Position numbers and translations under genes: made by a program | From: an uncultured bacterium | GTDB lineage: Bacteria; Actinomycetota; Actinomycetes; S36-B12; CAIYMF01 | Length of the DNA stretch: 64,000 nucleotides | NCBI GenBank assembly: GCA_903826575.1 | Contig: CAIKEU010000106.1 | Span: 1 to 64,000, forward strand | Direction of reading: 5' to 3' | Shown here: in pieces, positions 6,141 through 54,680 of the stretch | Numbering within the stretch: the first letter of the stretch is position 1 | Layout: every line of letters begins with the position of its first letter | The notes under the pieces: generated by a model | Databases searched by the model: none | Told to the model about the DNA's origin: nothing | The model's input: only the letters and a program-made list of their open reading frames with translations

Positions 6141-6300
6141 GAGATGTACGAAACCAAGGAAGGTCCGGGCCCATGACCGTATTCCTCGACGGTGGAGCCT
6201 CTCGCGCCCGCCAGGCATTCCGGCTTGCCGATCACTGTCGGCTTACGGTTGCGGGTCAGCGCCGGAATCTAACCGGCTTCCCCTGGACATCGAACGCAGT
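6141..6300 (-). promoter_or_regulatory. Cobalamin (AdoCbl) riboswitch aptamer
   Basis: Minus strand reads GGGGAAGCCGGTTAGATTCCGGCGCTGACCCGCAACCGTAAGCC...AAGCCGGAATGCCTGGC. This is the conserved B12 riboswitch core plus the B12-box pattern, upstream of the toroid/ECF operon. Outer boundaries approximate. Confidence 0.9.
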
Positions 6301-6379
6301 TATTTACTTGTAGGGCTACTGCACCACGGCGACTAGCCACATGTCAAAGGTCTCACCCATCTGACGGCGCGGCGGGCGT

Positions 6380-46488: not shown

Positions 46489-47835
46489 ATGGTGGACAAC
46501 CTCTCGTGGCCTGACCTTCCGGCTGCCCAGCAGCCGCAATGGCCAGATCAGATTGCCCTCGATGGGGTTCTGTCTCAGTTGCGTACGCTGCCGCCGCTGG
46601 TCTTTGCTGGTGAATGCGATCAGCTTCAAACTCGACTTGCCGGGGCGAGCCGTGGCGAAGCCTTCGTTCTCATGGGCGGTGATTGCGCTGAAACGTTCGA
46701 CGGGGCAACCGCTGAGGCGATCCGCGGGAAGTTGAAGACGGTTCTGCAGATGGCGATCGTCCTGACGTACGGTGCGAGCCTGCCGGTCGTCAAGGTGGGC
46801 CGGATGGCTGGGCAGTACTTCAAGCCGCGGAGTAAGCCGCTTGAGTCTCGCGACGGAGTCGAACTGCCCTCCTACTTTGGGGACGGCGTCAATGCCCTGG
46901 CCTTTGATGAGCAGGGTCGAATTCCCGATCCGAATCGACTCTTGCGCAGCTATCAGACGGCGAGTTCGACGCTGAATTTGGTGCGCGCCTTCACCCAAGG
47001 CGGCTATGCCGATCTTCGCGAAGTTCATTCGTGGAATCAGGACTTCGTCGCCGAAACTCCGGCAGGTAACCGGTACGAGCAGGTGGCTGGCGAAATCGAT
47101 CGTGCGTTGTCGTTCATGGCTGCCTGCGGTGCAGATCCGGACGAATTCAAGCGCGTTGAGTTTTACTCGGGCCACGAGGCCTTAGTGCTTGATTACGAAA
47201 AAGCCATGACGCGCATAGATTCTCGGACGGGTAATCCGTACGACGTGAGCGGTCACTTCATCTGGGTCGGCGAGCGCACCCGTCAACTTGATGGTGCCCA
47301 CATCGATTTTGTCTCGAGGATTCATAATCCAATCGGCGTGAAACTGGGACCGACAACCTCGCCGGAAGCAGCCGTCGAGATGGCTGAACTCCTCAATCCA
47401 GAGCGCATTGACGGCCGCCTTACGTTCATCTCACGAATGGGTGCCGGGGTCGTTCGCGACGCACTGCCGCCGATTGTTGAAAAGGTTCAGGCCAGCGGCC
47501 ATCGAGTTTTGTGGATCTGTGATCCGATGCATGGAAACACGCGTGAGGGTAGTACCGGCCACAAGACTCGCTCGTACGACGATGTAGCGGACGAGGTCCT
47601 TGGCTTTTTCCAAGTGCACAAGGCACTTGGCACGGTCCCCGGTGGCATTCACGTGGAGCTCACCGGTGACGATGTCACCGAGTGCGTCGGCGGAACCCTT
47701 GGCGTTACTGAAGATCAGGTGGGTGATCGTTATGAAACGGCCTGCGATCCGCGGCTTAACCGGTCGCAGTCACTTGAACTTGCATTTGATGTTGCCGATT
47801 ATCTGCTGGACCGCCCGCGGGTGGGACTCATCTAG
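46489..47835 (+). CDS. 3-deoxy-7-phosphoheptulonate synthase, class II
   Basis: 'SWPDLPAAQQPQWPDQIALDGVLSQLRTLPPLVFAGECDQL', 'GDCAETFDGATAEAIRGKLKTVLQMAIVLTYG', 'WICDPMHGNTREGSTGHKTRSYDDV'. Confidence 0.95.
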   Translation: MVDNLSWPDLPAAQQPQWPDQIALDGVLSQLRTLPPLVFAGECDQLQTRLAGASRGEAFVLMGGDCAETFDGATAEAIRGKLKTVLQMAIVLTYGASLPVVKVGRMAGQYFKPRSKPLESRDGVELPSYFGDGVNALAFDEQGRIPDPNRLLRSYQTASSTLNLVRAFTQGGYADLREVHSWNQDFVAETPAGNRYEQVAGEIDRALSFMAACGADPDEFKRVEFYSGHEALVLDYEKAMTRIDSRTGNPYDVSGHFIWVGERTRQLDGAHIDFVSRIHNPIGVKLGPTTSPEAAVEMAELLNPERIDGRLTFISRMGAGVVRDALPPIVEKVQASGHRVLWICDPMHGNTREGSTGHKTRSYDDVADEVLGFFQVHKALGTVPGGIHVELTGDDVTECVGGTLGVTEDQVGDRYETACDPRLNRSQSLELAFDVADYLLDRPRVGLI

Positions 47836-51034: not shown

Positions 51035-52069
51035 TTAGGCCGGCGGTGCCGTCAACGTACGACCGGCGATCGGTGCCAATGCCTTGATACTGGAGGTCAG
51101 TTCGGCCAGATCTTCGGCCATAAGTGCCTGAGGTCCATCACATAATGCTGTTGCTGGATCAGGGTGAACATCCACGATGATGCCGTCGGCACCGATTGCG
51201 ATGGCTGCCCTCGATAGTGGGACGACGAGGTCACGTCGACCGCCGGAGTGGGACGGATCCACAACGACCGGAAGATGTGACAAGGAGTGCACGACCGGAA
51301 CCGCCGAAATGTCGAGGGTGTTTCTGGTGGCCTTCTCGAAGGTACGAATCCCACGCTCGCACAGGACGATCTCGAGATTGCCGCGTTGCGCGATGTATTC
51401 AGCGGCCATCAACCACTCTTCGATCGTCGAACTCATGCCGCGCTTGAGCATCACGGGTTTCCCAGCCGCGCCAACTGCTTGCAAGAGGGCGAAGTTCTGC
51501 GCGTTCCTAGTACCTACTTGCAGCATGTCGGCGTAAGACGCGACCACATCGACATCGGCAACATCGACGACCTCGGTGACGATTGGCAGACCAGTTTCGG
51601 CCCGTACGTCGGCAAGAATGCGAAGACCCGCCTCGCCGAGTCCTTGGAACGCGTAGGGCGATGATCGGGGCTTGTAAGCACCTCCACGCAGCAGGCTGGC
51701 ACCGGCAGCTTTTGCCATCTGTGCGGCCGCCAGTGTCTGCTCGGGCGTCTCGACGGCGCAGGGGCCGGCAATGAGGGTAAATGTTCTAGGACCGATTGGC
51801 GCCCGGCTTGTGCCGACCATCACGGTTGACTTCTCCGGGTGGTGATCGCGTGAGACCAGTTTGAACGGGGTGGAGATTCGCACCACCCGCTGAACGCCGT
51901 CGAAGGCCAGGAGATTTAGATCCTCGAACAGGTCAAGATCGCCGACAAGGCCGATGATTGTGCGCCGTTCCCCGCGGCTGACAAACGCTTGACCGCCCAC
52001 GCCGGTGACTTTCGAAACGACGGCATTGATGTTGACCTCAGTGGCCGATGGGCTAAGGACGATAACCAT
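51035..52069 (-). CDS. 3-deoxy-7-phosphoheptulonate synthase, type I-beta with N-terminal regulatory-like domain
   Basis: 344 aa; 'FTLIAGPCAVETPEQTLAAAQMAKAAGASLLRGGAYKPRSSPYAFQGLG', 'VVVDPSHSGGRRDLVVPLSRAAIAIGADGIIVDVHPDP'. Confidence 0.95.
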   Translation of the reverse strand: MVIVLSPSATEVNINAVVSKVTGVGGQAFVSRGERRTIIGLVGDLDLFEDLNLLAFDGVQRVVRISTPFKLVSRDHHPEKSTVMVGTSRAPIGPRTFTLIAGPCAVETPEQTLAAAQMAKAAGASLLRGGAYKPRSSPYAFQGLGEAGLRILADVRAETGLPIVTEVVDVADVDVVASYADMLQVGTRNAQNFALLQAVGAAGKPVMLKRGMSSTIEEWLMAAEYIAQRGNLEIVLCERGIRTFEKATRNTLDISAVPVVHSLSHLPVVVDPSHSGGRRDLVVPLSRAAIAIGADGIIVDVHPDPATALCDGPQALMAEDLAELTSSIKALAPIAGRTLTAPPA

Positions 52070-52109: not shown

Positions 52110-52146
52110 CAAGCAAAAAGCCCCGGCCAAAGGCGCGGGGCTTGAT
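52110..52146 (-). terminator. Attenuator terminator hairpin upstream of the type I DAHP synthase
   Basis: Minus strand: AAGCCCCG cgcctttggc CGGGGCTTTTTGC; 8-bp GC-rich stem followed by a U-tract. Confidence 0.85.
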
Positions 52147-52162
52147 GAGTGGACGCGAACGA

Positions 52163-52219
52163 CTAGACCGCCCACCCGGTAACCCCGGGTCGGTAGCCAT
52201 AAAAATATGTCGAACGCAT
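52163..52219 (-). CDS. Aromatic leader peptide (putative attenuator) MRSTYFYGYRPGVTGWAV*
   Basis: 18-codon ORF preceded by AGGATGG, followed by the terminator hairpin at 52110-52146 and the DAHP synthase gene. Residues include Y-F-Y-G-Y and W. Confidence 0.82.
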   Translation of the reverse strand: MRSTYFYGYRPGVTGWAV

Positions 52220-52229
52220 AGTCGCCATC

Positions 52230-54110
52230 CTAGACGACGTCGATGCTGATCGTCGATCCCCATGGCAGTTCGGTGCCGACTGGTTCAGATTGGCGAACAA
52301 CTCGACCGAAGGGTGCGATCCCGAGCGGGTACGTAACGGTGACCTTGAATCCCAAGCCGGTCAGCGTGGAACGTGCGTCAGCTTCAGCGGTCTTATAGAG
52401 ATCCGGCACGGTGATCAGGGGCGGCCCTTTACTGACAACGAGAGAGACCGAGTCACCGCGGTTGACCTTGGATCCCGCCGACGGATCGGTAGAGATGACG
52501 TGGCCGGTTGGAACCGTCTTGCTGTATTCGCGGCTCACCGAATATGTCAGGCCCGCGTTGGTCAAAGTTTTTTCGGCGCCGCTCAAGGATCGTCCGGCCA
52601 GATTCGGAACGGGCACTGGGGCTGGGCCCTTAGACACGATCAACGTCACTTGTTGATTGCGCTTGAGTTTCTGACTTGCTGGCGGATTTGTGCCAACAAC
52701 CTTTCCCTTGGGAATTTTTTCGTCATATGTCGTGGTTTGGCCGCCGACCGTGAGTGAACTGTCGGTGATGGCGGCAGTTGCATCAGCCACTGACATCCCA
52801 GCCACCTGAGGAATCGCATATCGCTCAAGGCCTTTGGAGACGATCGCGGTGACGTTAGAGCCGTCACGAACGTCTACTCCAGCAGTCGGATTCGTCGAAA
52901 TAATCTGACCGACAGGAACAACTTCGCTGAATTGCTGGCCGGCCACGGACAACGTCAGGTTTAGGGGCTTGAGCCTGGCTTGGGCGGCGGTGGTTGTGAG
53001 ACCAGTGACGCTCGGGACCGCAACTTTCTTTCCCACGCCCAGGAACCATGCGGCACCCGCAACGAGTGCGGCGATGACGCTAAAGATCAGCAGCGCAATG
53101 ACACCTTTGCGTTTATTGCGAGGTGCGCGAGTTACCTGCGGGGGAGCGTCCAGCGAGTTCTGAACGATCGGACCGGTCTGCATCGTGGCAAGCGGAACAA
53201 TCAGCGTTGATGCGTTCGATCCGCCGAGATCGAACGGTCGCGGTGCCGGAAGTGCAGAACGGATCCGGCGCACATCGGCGAGGAAACTTCCTGCATCGCG
53301 GTAGCGCAGATCGGGGTCTCGTTCGGTTGCGCGCGCCACGAGTGCATCGACCTCGGCGGTGATTCCTGGCCGGATGCTCGAGGGAACGGGTACCACCGCG
53401 TTGACATGTTGATAGGCCACGGCAAGCGGAGTTTCACCGGCGAAGGGAACGGCCCCCGTGATCATTTCGTAGAGCAGGATTCCGGCGCCGTACACGTCGC
53501 TACGCGCATCGGCGATTCCGCGCTGGACTTGCTCCGGCGACAAATACGCCACAGTTCCGATCAGTAGTCCTTGGGTAGCCGCGGTGGCATTACCTGCGGT
53601 GATCGCGCGTGCCAAACCAAAGTCGGCGACCTTCACTCGACCGTCATCGGTGAGTAGGACGTTTTCGGGTTTGACGTCACGATGCACGAAGCCGGCTGCG
53701 TGAGCCGCATCGAGAGCCTGCAGCACTGGGTCCAGAATCGTCAGGGCCTGCTCAGGGGTAAGGCGACCGAACTCACGCAGCACATCGCGCACCGTGCGAC
53801 CCGGTACGTACTCCATGACGAGGTAGATCAGACCGCTGTCTTCACCCTGATCGTAAACAGCCACAACATGTTGATCACTGAGCCGTGCTGCGGATTTGGC
53901 TTCGCGAACGAACCGCGAGACAAACGCGTTATCTTCGGCCAGCGAGGCATGCATGATTTTGATCGCGACGTGCCGATCAAGGCGAAGATCTGTCGCCGAA
54001 TAAACCGTAGCCATCCCACCGCGGGCGATCCGATCTTCAATTCGGTATCGGCCGTCGAGAGTTCGCCCGACCAGTGGGTCAGCGACGGCGGTTTTTGCGG
54101 ACGACTCCAT
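52230..54110 (-). CDS. Ser/Thr protein kinase with four PASTA domains (PknB/Stk1 family)
   Basis: Kinase motifs 'FVHRDVKPENVLL', 'KVADFGLARA'; TM helix; four PASTA units beginning AVPSVTG, AIPQVAG, PVPNLAG, TVPDLYK. Start at 54110 or 54134. Confidence 0.95.
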   Translation of the reverse strand: MESSAKTAVADPLVGRTLDGRYRIEDRIARGGMATVYSATDLRLDRHVAIKIMHASLAEDNAFVSRFVREAKSAARLSDQHVVAVYDQGEDSGLIYLVMEYVPGRTVRDVLREFGRLTPEQALTILDPVLQALDAAHAAGFVHRDVKPENVLLTDDGRVKVADFGLARAITAGNATAATQGLLIGTVAYLSPEQVQRGIADARSDVYGAGILLYEMITGAVPFAGETPLAVAYQHVNAVVPVPSSIRPGITAEVDALVARATERDPDLRYRDAGSFLADVRRIRSALPAPRPFDLGGSNASTLIVPLATMQTGPIVQNSLDAPPQVTRAPRNKRKGVIALLIFSVIAALVAGAAWFLGVGKKVAVPSVTGLTTTAAQARLKPLNLTLSVAGQQFSEVVPVGQIISTNPTAGVDVRDGSNVTAIVSKGLERYAIPQVAGMSVADATAAITDSSLTVGGQTTTYDEKIPKGKVVGTNPPASQKLKRNQQVTLIVSKGPAPVPVPNLAGRSLSGAEKTLTNAGLTYSVSREYSKTVPTGHVISTDPSAGSKVNRGDSVSLVVSKGPPLITVPDLYKTAEADARSTLTGLGFKVTVTYPLGIAPFGRVVRQSEPVGTELPWGSTISIDVV

Positions 54111-54311
54111 AATTGTTGAGTCTACGTAGGACATGCCGCAGGAAGGGTCTGGCGCGCCGATTTGTCCGATTGTGATGTGCGAGCGATGCGGCTCCGCGAT
54201 GCGAGCGATGACAGCGATGCGGCCCATTTCTGCGAACTCGTCGTCATCACGGCAGGATGTACATATGGTCTCTCGAAAAGCGCCCCTCGTGTGGTCCTTC
54301 GGGATGGTGTT

Positions 54312-54680
54312 GTGAGCCATCTGGCCTACGTGGCCGTGCTTGTCTTCATCCTGATCGGCGCGGGTTGGCTTGAAGTCGCCATGCGCACTCGGGTCTTTTC
54401 CAAGTGGCGTCGAATGATCCTGACCATCGTTCCGGTGGTCGTGATCTTCAGTGCTTGGGACGTATACGCAATTGCACAGGGGCACTGGAGTTTTGACTGG
54501 GCGCACGTCACCGGGGTGGTTTTCCCGGGTGGTCTTCCGCTGGACGAGGTGTTGTTCTTCATCGTCGTGCCCATAGCGGCCATTCTGACGCTAGAGGCGG
54601 TTCGAGCGGTTAAGCGCTGGCAGGTTGGTGACGAGCCGGCTGATGAGATCGTCAACGGTAGTCGGATGGGGGAGTTATGA
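54312..54680 (+). CDS. crtYc: Lycopene cyclase domain protein (CrtYc-type subunit)
   Basis: Small 3-TM protein with 'GVVFPGGLPLDEVLFFIVVPIAAILTLEAVR' (PxDE); directly followed by a second cyclase-domain ORF. Confidence 0.88.
   Translation: MSHLAYVAVLVFILIGAGWLEVAMRTRVFSKWRRMILTIVPVVVIFSAWDVYAIAQGHWSFDWAHVTGVVFPGGLPLDEVLFFIVVPIAAILTLEAVRAVKRWQVGDEPADEIVNGSRMGEL

What the first reader, a model, noticed from the sequence alone, without database searches (positions are those of the whole stretch)
52110..52219. Aromatic-residue leader peptide and terminator: ribosome-mediated attenuator of a DAHP synthase
Minus strand encodes ATG CGT TCG ACA TAT TTT TAT GGC TAC CGA CCC GGG GTT ACC GGG TGG GCG GTC TAG, i.e. 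MRSTYFYGYRPGVTGWAV*. Five of 18 residues are aromatic (3 Tyr, 1 Phe, 1 Trp). A GC-rich hairpin with a U-tract follows, then the type I DAHP synthase. The leader region itself can fold (ACCCGG/CCGGGT), consistent with alternative structures. Aromatic leader attenuation of DAHP synthase genes is known in some actinobacteria. This leader contains codons for all three aromatic amino acids. It was absent from the supplied ORF track.
Basis: partly seen in the sequence, partly recalled or inferred. Interest (0 to 1): 0.75.

Follow-up and report, generated by a model that had tools for sequence, protein, structure and literature searches.

The report
Tyrosine/phenylalanine-sensing attenuator before DAHP synthase
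A tiny 18-codon gene packed with tyrosine and phenylalanine codons, followed by an RNA off-switch, sits in front of the first enzyme of aromatic amino-acid synthesis; the same arrangement is conserved in dozens of actinobacteria and most likely lets the cell make the enzyme only when those amino acids run short.

Summary
On the minus strand, 52219-52163 encodes MRSTYFYGYRPGVTGWAV*, followed by an intrinsic terminator (52143-52115) and a type I-beta DAHP synthase (52069-51035).

It is not chance. I found 61 distinct relatives of this leader upstream of orthologous DAHP synthases in Nanopelagicales-type MAGs, Nocardiopsis, Actinomadura, Streptosporangiaceae genera and Nocardioides. All keep an aromatic codon cluster, with Phe/Tyr/Trp swapping places, and a terminator hairpin. 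All 61 have a -10 box (TAnnnT) 6-9 nt before an in-frame leader start, so the mRNA is probably leaderless.

The fold gives a complete switch: a protector hairpin; a composite antiterminator (leader segment A pairing with terminator arm D around a stop-codon hairpin); and the terminator. A:D covaries (27 double-change cells; 0 of 500 shuffles reach the score). It forms in silico when a ribosome stalls on Tyr5/Phe6/Tyr7, and not when the ribosome is at the stop codon.

Two corrections: Trp16 is not a conserved control codon, so this copy reads Tyr/Phe; and the antiterminator is not the ACCCGG/CCGGGT hairpin.

A related leader, nearly without Trp, precedes chorismate mutase in Streptomyces. No Rfam family matches. 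The mechanism is known (trp/phe type; C. glutamicum aroR); this family was not in the literature I could search.

The parts
52227..52256 (-). Putative promoter TCGACG-N18-TAGGAT inside the 3' end of the PknB/PASTA kinase gene; the -10 overlaps the kinase stop codon
   Evidence: sequence; TAnnnT 6-9 nt before the leader start in 61/61 leaders vs 1/266 control starts
52163..52219 (-). Leader peptide ORF MRSTYFYGYRPGVTGWAV*, predicted leaderless
52199..52207 (-). Control codons TAT TTT TAT (Tyr5-Phe6-Tyr7)
   Evidence: aligned codon columns are 73, 90 and 96% aromatic across 48 leaders; stalling here frees segment A
52174..52190 (-). Protector hairpin P1 (ACCCGG ... CCGGGT)
   Evidence: MFE without ribosome; cross-species swap test
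52181..52187 (-). Segment A (CGGGGTT): 5' strand of the antiterminator, a mimic of the terminator 3' arm
   Evidence: covariation at the aligned A:D columns in the family
52147..52177 (-). Antiterminator inner hairpin P2 (GGGTGGGCG ... CGTCCACTC) spanning the leader stop codon; excludes P1
52115..52143 (-). Intrinsic terminator D:E (AAGCCCCGCGCC ttt GGCCGGGGCTT) with U tract; D (52142-52136) also pairs with A
51035..52069 (-). Type I-beta DAHP synthase (3-deoxy-7-phosphoheptulonate synthase), the regulated gene

Best explanation
This is a ribosome-mediated transcription attenuator that senses Tyr-tRNA and Phe-tRNA charging and controls a type I-beta DAHP synthase. Transcription starts at or next to the leader start codon. 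When Tyr/Phe are plentiful the ribosome runs to the stop codon, covers segments A and P2, and leaves terminator arm D free; D pairs with E and RNA polymerase stops before the gene. When Tyr-tRNA or Phe-tRNA is scarce the ribosome stalls on Tyr5-Phe6-Tyr7, masking the 5' side of the protector hairpin. The stop-codon hairpin P2 and the enclosing A:D helix then form before E is made, D is sequestered, and polymerase reads into the DAHP synthase gene. Shown here: the ORF, terminator, conserved aromatic codons, -10 spacing, mutually exclusive helices and their coevolution. Inferred: promoter activity, ribosome stalling, and amino-acid-dependent read-through.
For: Homologous leaders occur in 61 distinct relatives across several orders. 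The aligned codon columns are 73, 90 and 96% aromatic, with Phe, Tyr and Trp replacing each other (TTT/TTC, TAT, TGG), which points to selection on amino-acid class. With a ribosome masking Tyr5, Phe6 or Tyr7, the window's nascent RNA folds into A:D plus P2 (-28.7, -28.7 and -28.4 kcal/mol at 30 C); without a ribosome it folds into P1 with D not paired to A. Across 63 loci, P(A:D) is 0.94 when stalled one codon before the last clustered aromatic, 0.68 without a ribosome, 0.00 at the stop codon, 0.79 with segment A shuffled. A:D covariation score is 0.251 against 0.104 in shuffles (0/500) and at most 0.072 when slid, with 27 cells changed on both sides. Swap tests favour own partners for P1, P2 and A:D (each P=0.0002). 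The -10 spacing holds in 61/61 leaders. The covariance model recovers the window (E=3e-15; it was among the training sequences) and many other actinobacterial genomes.
Against: No expression, Term-seq or Ribo-seq data. In the complete RNA the terminator is thermodynamically favoured even with a stalled ribosome, so the switch must be kinetic, as in other attenuators. GC-rich sequence pairs readily: shuffled segment A still reaches P(A:D)=0.79, and in some clades A:D also forms without a ribosome. Swap and shuffle tests do not fully correct for relatedness. RNAalifold on the mixed-clade alignments found nothing (A1) or only the terminator core (A2).
Confidence: 0.92

Rival explanations
1. The hairpin is only the terminator of the upstream PknB/PASTA kinase gene, and the short aromatic ORF is a chance reading frame.
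For: The hairpin is a good terminator directly downstream of the kinase gene; short ORFs are common (958 of 12-40 codons in the window).
Against: Aromatic codons are conserved in 61 relatives with W/F/Y interchange; every leader has a -10 at fixed spacing from its start; segment A covaries with the terminator arm. Relatives that keep this DAHP synthase but lack the leader (L012, L014, L016-L020) show no such terminator either.
Confidence: 0.03
2. The leader works by translational coupling, Rho-dependent termination or mRNA stability rather than an intrinsic terminator switch.
For: In S. coelicolor ilvB and leuA, mutation of leader codons did not give classical attenuation (discussed in PMC1262725).
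Against: A GC-rich stem with a U-rich tail is kept throughout the family and one arm covaries with the leader; the leader stop lies about 94 nt before the gene start, too far for simple coupling.
Confidence: 0.04
3. The leader RNA is a metabolite-binding riboswitch or T-box, and the peptide is incidental.
For: Alternative structures and a terminator are also typical of riboswitches.
Against: No Rfam family reaches its gathering score here or in eight family members; the relaxed scan gives only sub-threshold hits. Conservation is concentrated in codons and competing helices, not in an aptamer core.
Confidence: 0.01

Closest known systems
Corynebacterium glutamicum aroR attenuator upstream of aroF (Neshat et al. 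2014, cited in PMC11802643 and PMC7356990; PMC4046766)
   Same: Actinobacterial leader peptide with a Phe/Tyr cluster (Phe-Tyr-Phe) upstream of a DAHP synthase; reported to be de-repressed under Phe limitation.
   Different: aroR regulates aroF; genomes in unnamed families f9 and f23 carry aromatic leaders before type I-alpha (TIGR00034) genes with visibly different hairpins. The window's enzyme is type I-beta, and the RNA family described here sits on type I-beta DAHP synthases and on chorismate mutase. The aroR sequence itself was not compared.
Escherichia coli pheL-pheA, pheST and trpL attenuators
   Same: Mechanism: stalling at control codons in a short leader selects antiterminator over intrinsic terminator (reviewed in PMC11802643).
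   Different: Here the antiterminator is composite (long-range A:D helix closing over a stop-codon hairpin), the mRNA is probably leaderless, and control codons are often UUU/UAU, nearly absent from the regulated genes. No detectable sequence relation.
trp, leu, ilv, ala and thr leaders of Streptomyces and Corynebacterium (PMC1262725, PMC8079986)
   Same: Actinobacterial leader peptides, mostly leaderless mRNAs, several with intrinsic terminators.
   Different: They sense other amino acids. [quoted passage not shown] lividans table in PMC8079986 lists no Phe/Tyr leader.

Membership tests
Ribosome-mediated transcription attenuators (trp/phe/his type) | Short translated leader with clustered codons for the pathway's end product | tested here: met
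   Tyr5-Phe6-Tyr7; conserved aromatic columns in 48 aligned leaders. Translation itself was not measured.
Ribosome-mediated transcription attenuators (trp/phe/his type) | Intrinsic terminator between leader and structural gene | tested here: met
   52143-52115; conserved stem with compensatory changes
Ribosome-mediated transcription attenuators (trp/phe/his type) | Mutually exclusive antiterminator that forms when the ribosome stalls on the control codons | tested here: met
   In silico only; A:D covariation; swap tests
Ribosome-mediated transcription attenuators (trp/phe/his type) | Downstream gene belongs to the biosynthesis of the sensed amino acid | tested here: met
   DAHP synthase; in relatives also chorismate mutase
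Ribosome-mediated transcription attenuators (trp/phe/his type) | Read-through depends on amino-acid supply and on leader translation | not testable with these tools
   Needs reporter, Term-seq or Ribo-seq experiments
aroR-aroF attenuator (C. glutamicum type) | Located upstream of a type I-alpha (aroFGH, TIGR00034) DAHP synthase | tested here: not met
   The window enzyme is type I-beta; TIGR00034 finds nothing in the window's genome. That C. glutamicum aroF is type I-alpha is general knowledge, consistent with the control hit.
Rfam leader families | Match at the family's gathering score | tested here: not met
   No match; best leader-type hit is Leu_leader at 13.7 bits against a 50-bit threshold

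The most novel reading that the evidence does not exclude
This is one member of a widespread, so far unnamed actinobacterial family of aromatic attenuators whose residue make-up follows the branch of the pathway controlled. Most DAHP synthase leaders carry Trp as well as Phe/Tyr in the cluster (44 of 61), while Streptomyces-type leaders before chorismate mutase, which feeds only Phe and Tyr, carry Phe/Tyr and almost never Trp (1 of 12). The stalling codons are largely UUU and UAU, nearly absent from the regulated genes, which may sharpen sensing of tRNA charging.
Probability: 0.5. Interest if true: 0.6.

Novelty: new member of a known kind. Interest (0 to 1): 0.5.

Why it matters
Phe/Tyr-responsive leader control in Actinobacteria is documented in the papers I found mainly for C. 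glutamicum aroF, and a 2005 comparative survey reported no such elements for Phe or Tyr genes. A conserved, unannotated attenuator family on the entry enzyme of the shikimate pathway, and on chorismate mutase in Streptomyces, would explain part of how antibiotic-producing actinobacteria control aromatic precursors. It gives engineers a defined element to remove and provides clear mutational tests. The Phe/Tyr codon bias (UUU 57% in leaders against 1% in the DAHP genes; UAU 69% against 1%) makes the role of codon choice in stalling testable.

Tried and rejected
RNAalifold on mixed-clade MAFFT alignments: no structure (A1) and terminator core only (A2); clades use different helix registers. 'Probability that D is paired to anything upstream' as a read-out did not separate states, because masked-ribosome folding allowed pairing across the ribosome; I replaced it with P(A:D) in RNA downstream of the ribosome. 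A raw A:D duplex-energy comparison between clades was ambiguous because GC-rich arms are sticky; interaction-corrected swaps and column covariation resolved it. My first terminator finder missed the Nanopelagicales terminators because of a 1-nt bulge. Trp16 as a third sensor was considered and rejected. The upstream in-frame ATG at 52228 (MATMRS...) was considered and rejected as the start, because it lies inside the -10 box and is not present in L002. Many weak model matches (E about 1e-5) are ordinary terminators or other attenuators and were not counted. Paper searches found no description of this family; the library lacks most subscription journals.

Full report
What is there. Minus strand 52219-52163 reads ATG CGT TCG ACA TAT TTT TAT GGC TAC CGA CCC GGG GTT ACC GGG TGG GCG GTC TAG. 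A strong terminator hairpin with a 1-nt bulge and five U's follows, and the gene 52069-51035 (-) is a type I-beta DAHP synthase. The leader starts 11 nt after the stop codon of a PknB/PASTA kinase gene (52230-54506), and its -10 box overlaps that stop codon.

More than chance. The same protein was sought in 60 related genomes and in named genomes. Taking upstream regions, I obtained 63 loci (61 after removing two duplicates of the same locus) with an aromatic leader and a terminator-like hairpin. They come from the window's own genus and family, another family of its order (L015), Nocardiopsis and relatives, Actinomadura and relatives, Microbispora/Nonomuraea/Streptosporangium and relatives, Nocardioides, and several MAGs. 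Named Nanopelagicales and Actinomycetota MAGs carry the same leaders as G-handle relatives (L023/L006, L024/L008), which suggests the window is a relatively large-genome member of that group. Examples: MRPNYFYGYQPGVSGWAV, VRSWQFYGDRPGSSRVGRAS, MQRNFWRFYGYRPTGRTVACRALR, VRNTVYFFWFDQPGRLVCQALR, MRTAWSFWYGDGPVRTDRLHALR, VTHSYFFGHLPGLPVRGV. Some relatives have the gene without the leader (L012, L014, L016-L020).

Selection on codons. In the 48-sequence alignment the codon columns at 13, 16 and 19 are 73, 90 and 96% aromatic. The residues interchange between Phe, Tyr and Trp, which in the case of Trp needs double nucleotide changes (TGG to TTT/TAT); the columns directly after the cluster are mostly not aromatic, apart from a Tyr in 16 of 48 at column 25. 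TTT is 57% of Phe codons in leaders against 1% in the DAHP genes themselves, and TAT is 69% of Tyr codons against 1%. I cannot tell whether this reflects decoding or a nucleotide-level constraint on UUUUAUGGC.

Leaderless start. Every one of 61 leaders has TAnnnT 6-9 nt before an in-frame ATG/GTG, against 1 of 266 other ATG/GTG codons in the same regions.

The switch. With a ribosome masking Tyr5, Phe6 or Tyr7, the window's nascent RNA (before E exists) folds as CGGGGUU (52187-52181): AGCCCCG (52142-52136), enclosing GGGUGGGCG (52177-52169): CGUCCACUC (52155-52147), at -28.7 to -28.4 kcal/mol (30 C). Without a ribosome, ACCCGG/CCGGGU forms and D is not sequestered by A. In the complete RNA the terminator wins in all states, so the choice must be made co-transcriptionally. 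Across 63 loci the mean P(A:D) is 1.00, 0.94 and 0.69 for stalls two codons before, one codon before, and on the last clustered aromatic codon, 0.68 without a ribosome and 0.00 with the ribosome at the stop codon. Segment A shuffled still gives 0.79, so the energy evidence alone is modest.

Coevolution. Columns of A against D: 82.8% of cells paired, covariation score 0.251 (shuffles 0.104, 0/500), 27 cells with both sides changed, and slid controls at most 0.072. For example, C-G becomes G-C in 10 sequences and G-C becomes A-U in 9. The terminator itself also covaries. Clade-swap tests show own partners fit better than foreign ones for P1, P2 and A:D after removing row and column effects (P=0.0002 each), though relatedness is not fully controlled.

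Trp16. In the window TGG lies in GGGTGGGC, the 5' strand of P2. In relatives with a loop one base different in length the same bases read CGG GTG GGC (Arg-Val-Gly). Only the window and L002 have Trp at this place among the near relatives. A ribosome stalled at Trp16 would cover A and P2 and favour termination. The window's attenuator therefore most likely reads Tyr and Phe.

Wider family. A covariance model (R1) searched in 297 genomes of the class found the window at 3e-15 and 163 genomes with some match, many of them weak terminators. In one large genus (f22 g45) the full-length matches precede not DAHP synthase but a CM_2-type chorismate mutase; Streptomyces sp. WAC 01529 has the same arrangement (L178). 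Their leaders (TTFLFTYGNRPTGCHGRAA and similar) contain Trp before the YG in 1 of 12, against 44 of 61 DAHP leaders with Trp in the cluster. This fits the enzyme's role in Phe/Tyr only, but the samples are phylogenetically clumped, and the window and Nocardioides leaders break the rule by lacking a clustered Trp. For two chorismate mutase leaders, a stalled ribosome likewise leaves an A:D-type helix over an inner hairpin.

Comparison with the known. The mechanism is that of trp/phe attenuators and of C. glutamicum aroR-aroF (PMC4046766, PMC11802643). I found aromatic leaders on type I-alpha DAHP synthases in families f9 and f23 with a different RNA layout, which look like the aroR kind. No Rfam family matches. 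PMC1262725 reports no Phe/Tyr elements in Actinobacteria. I file the window element as a new member of a known kind.

Limits. All functional statements are computational. The paper library lacks most subscription journals, so an earlier description cannot be excluded.

Noticed in passing
window 46501-47796 (+): A second DAHP synthase, of class II (PF01474), lies about 3 kb from the attenuated type I-beta gene. I saw no aromatic leader or terminator directly upstream, so one isozyme appears leader-controlled and the other not.
   Followed up: partly
window 6193-6309 (-): Cobalamin riboswitch (RF00174, 37.4 bits).
   Followed up: no
L133-L139, L154, L155, L157, L164, L178: Phe/Tyr leader peptides with a matching terminator upstream of a CM_2 chorismate mutase in Streptomyces (named for WAC 01529) and an unnamed genus; not found in the literature searched.
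   Followed up: partly
L150, L168, L152: Chorismate mutase leaders in other families (MLVGVTSAATRFFYGYRPPVAVAAV; VFDQRFFYYGTGSPAAVGRA), Phe/Tyr without Trp (L152 downstream protein not domain-checked).
   Followed up: partly
L196, L201-L206, L208, L210-L212, upstream of type I-alpha DAHP synthase: Aromatic leaders (VNIGRAGYWRFIEAPGGADKAQR; VITVRRYPYFAQAPGGAGRVMR) with a different hairpin set, e.g. GGCTCCGGGTG pairing with CACCCGGAGCC before a separate terminator; probably aroR-like.
   Followed up: partly
L003, L004, L006, L007, L010, L011, L013, roughly 40 nt upstream of the leader start: An inverted repeat resembling TGGACA...TGTCCA at or near the -35 region, possibly an operator; absent in the window, where the promoter lies inside the kinase gene.
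   Followed up: no
leaders of L001-L096: UUU and UAU make up 57% and 69% of Phe and Tyr codons in leaders against 1% in the DAHP genes; all 33 leaders with Tyr at alignment column 19 use UAU. Reason unknown.
   Followed up: partly
L166, L167: The model also picked up thrS leaders (MKRAAITTTPDSVPAR), similar to the thrL reported for S. lividans in PMC8079986.
   Followed up: no
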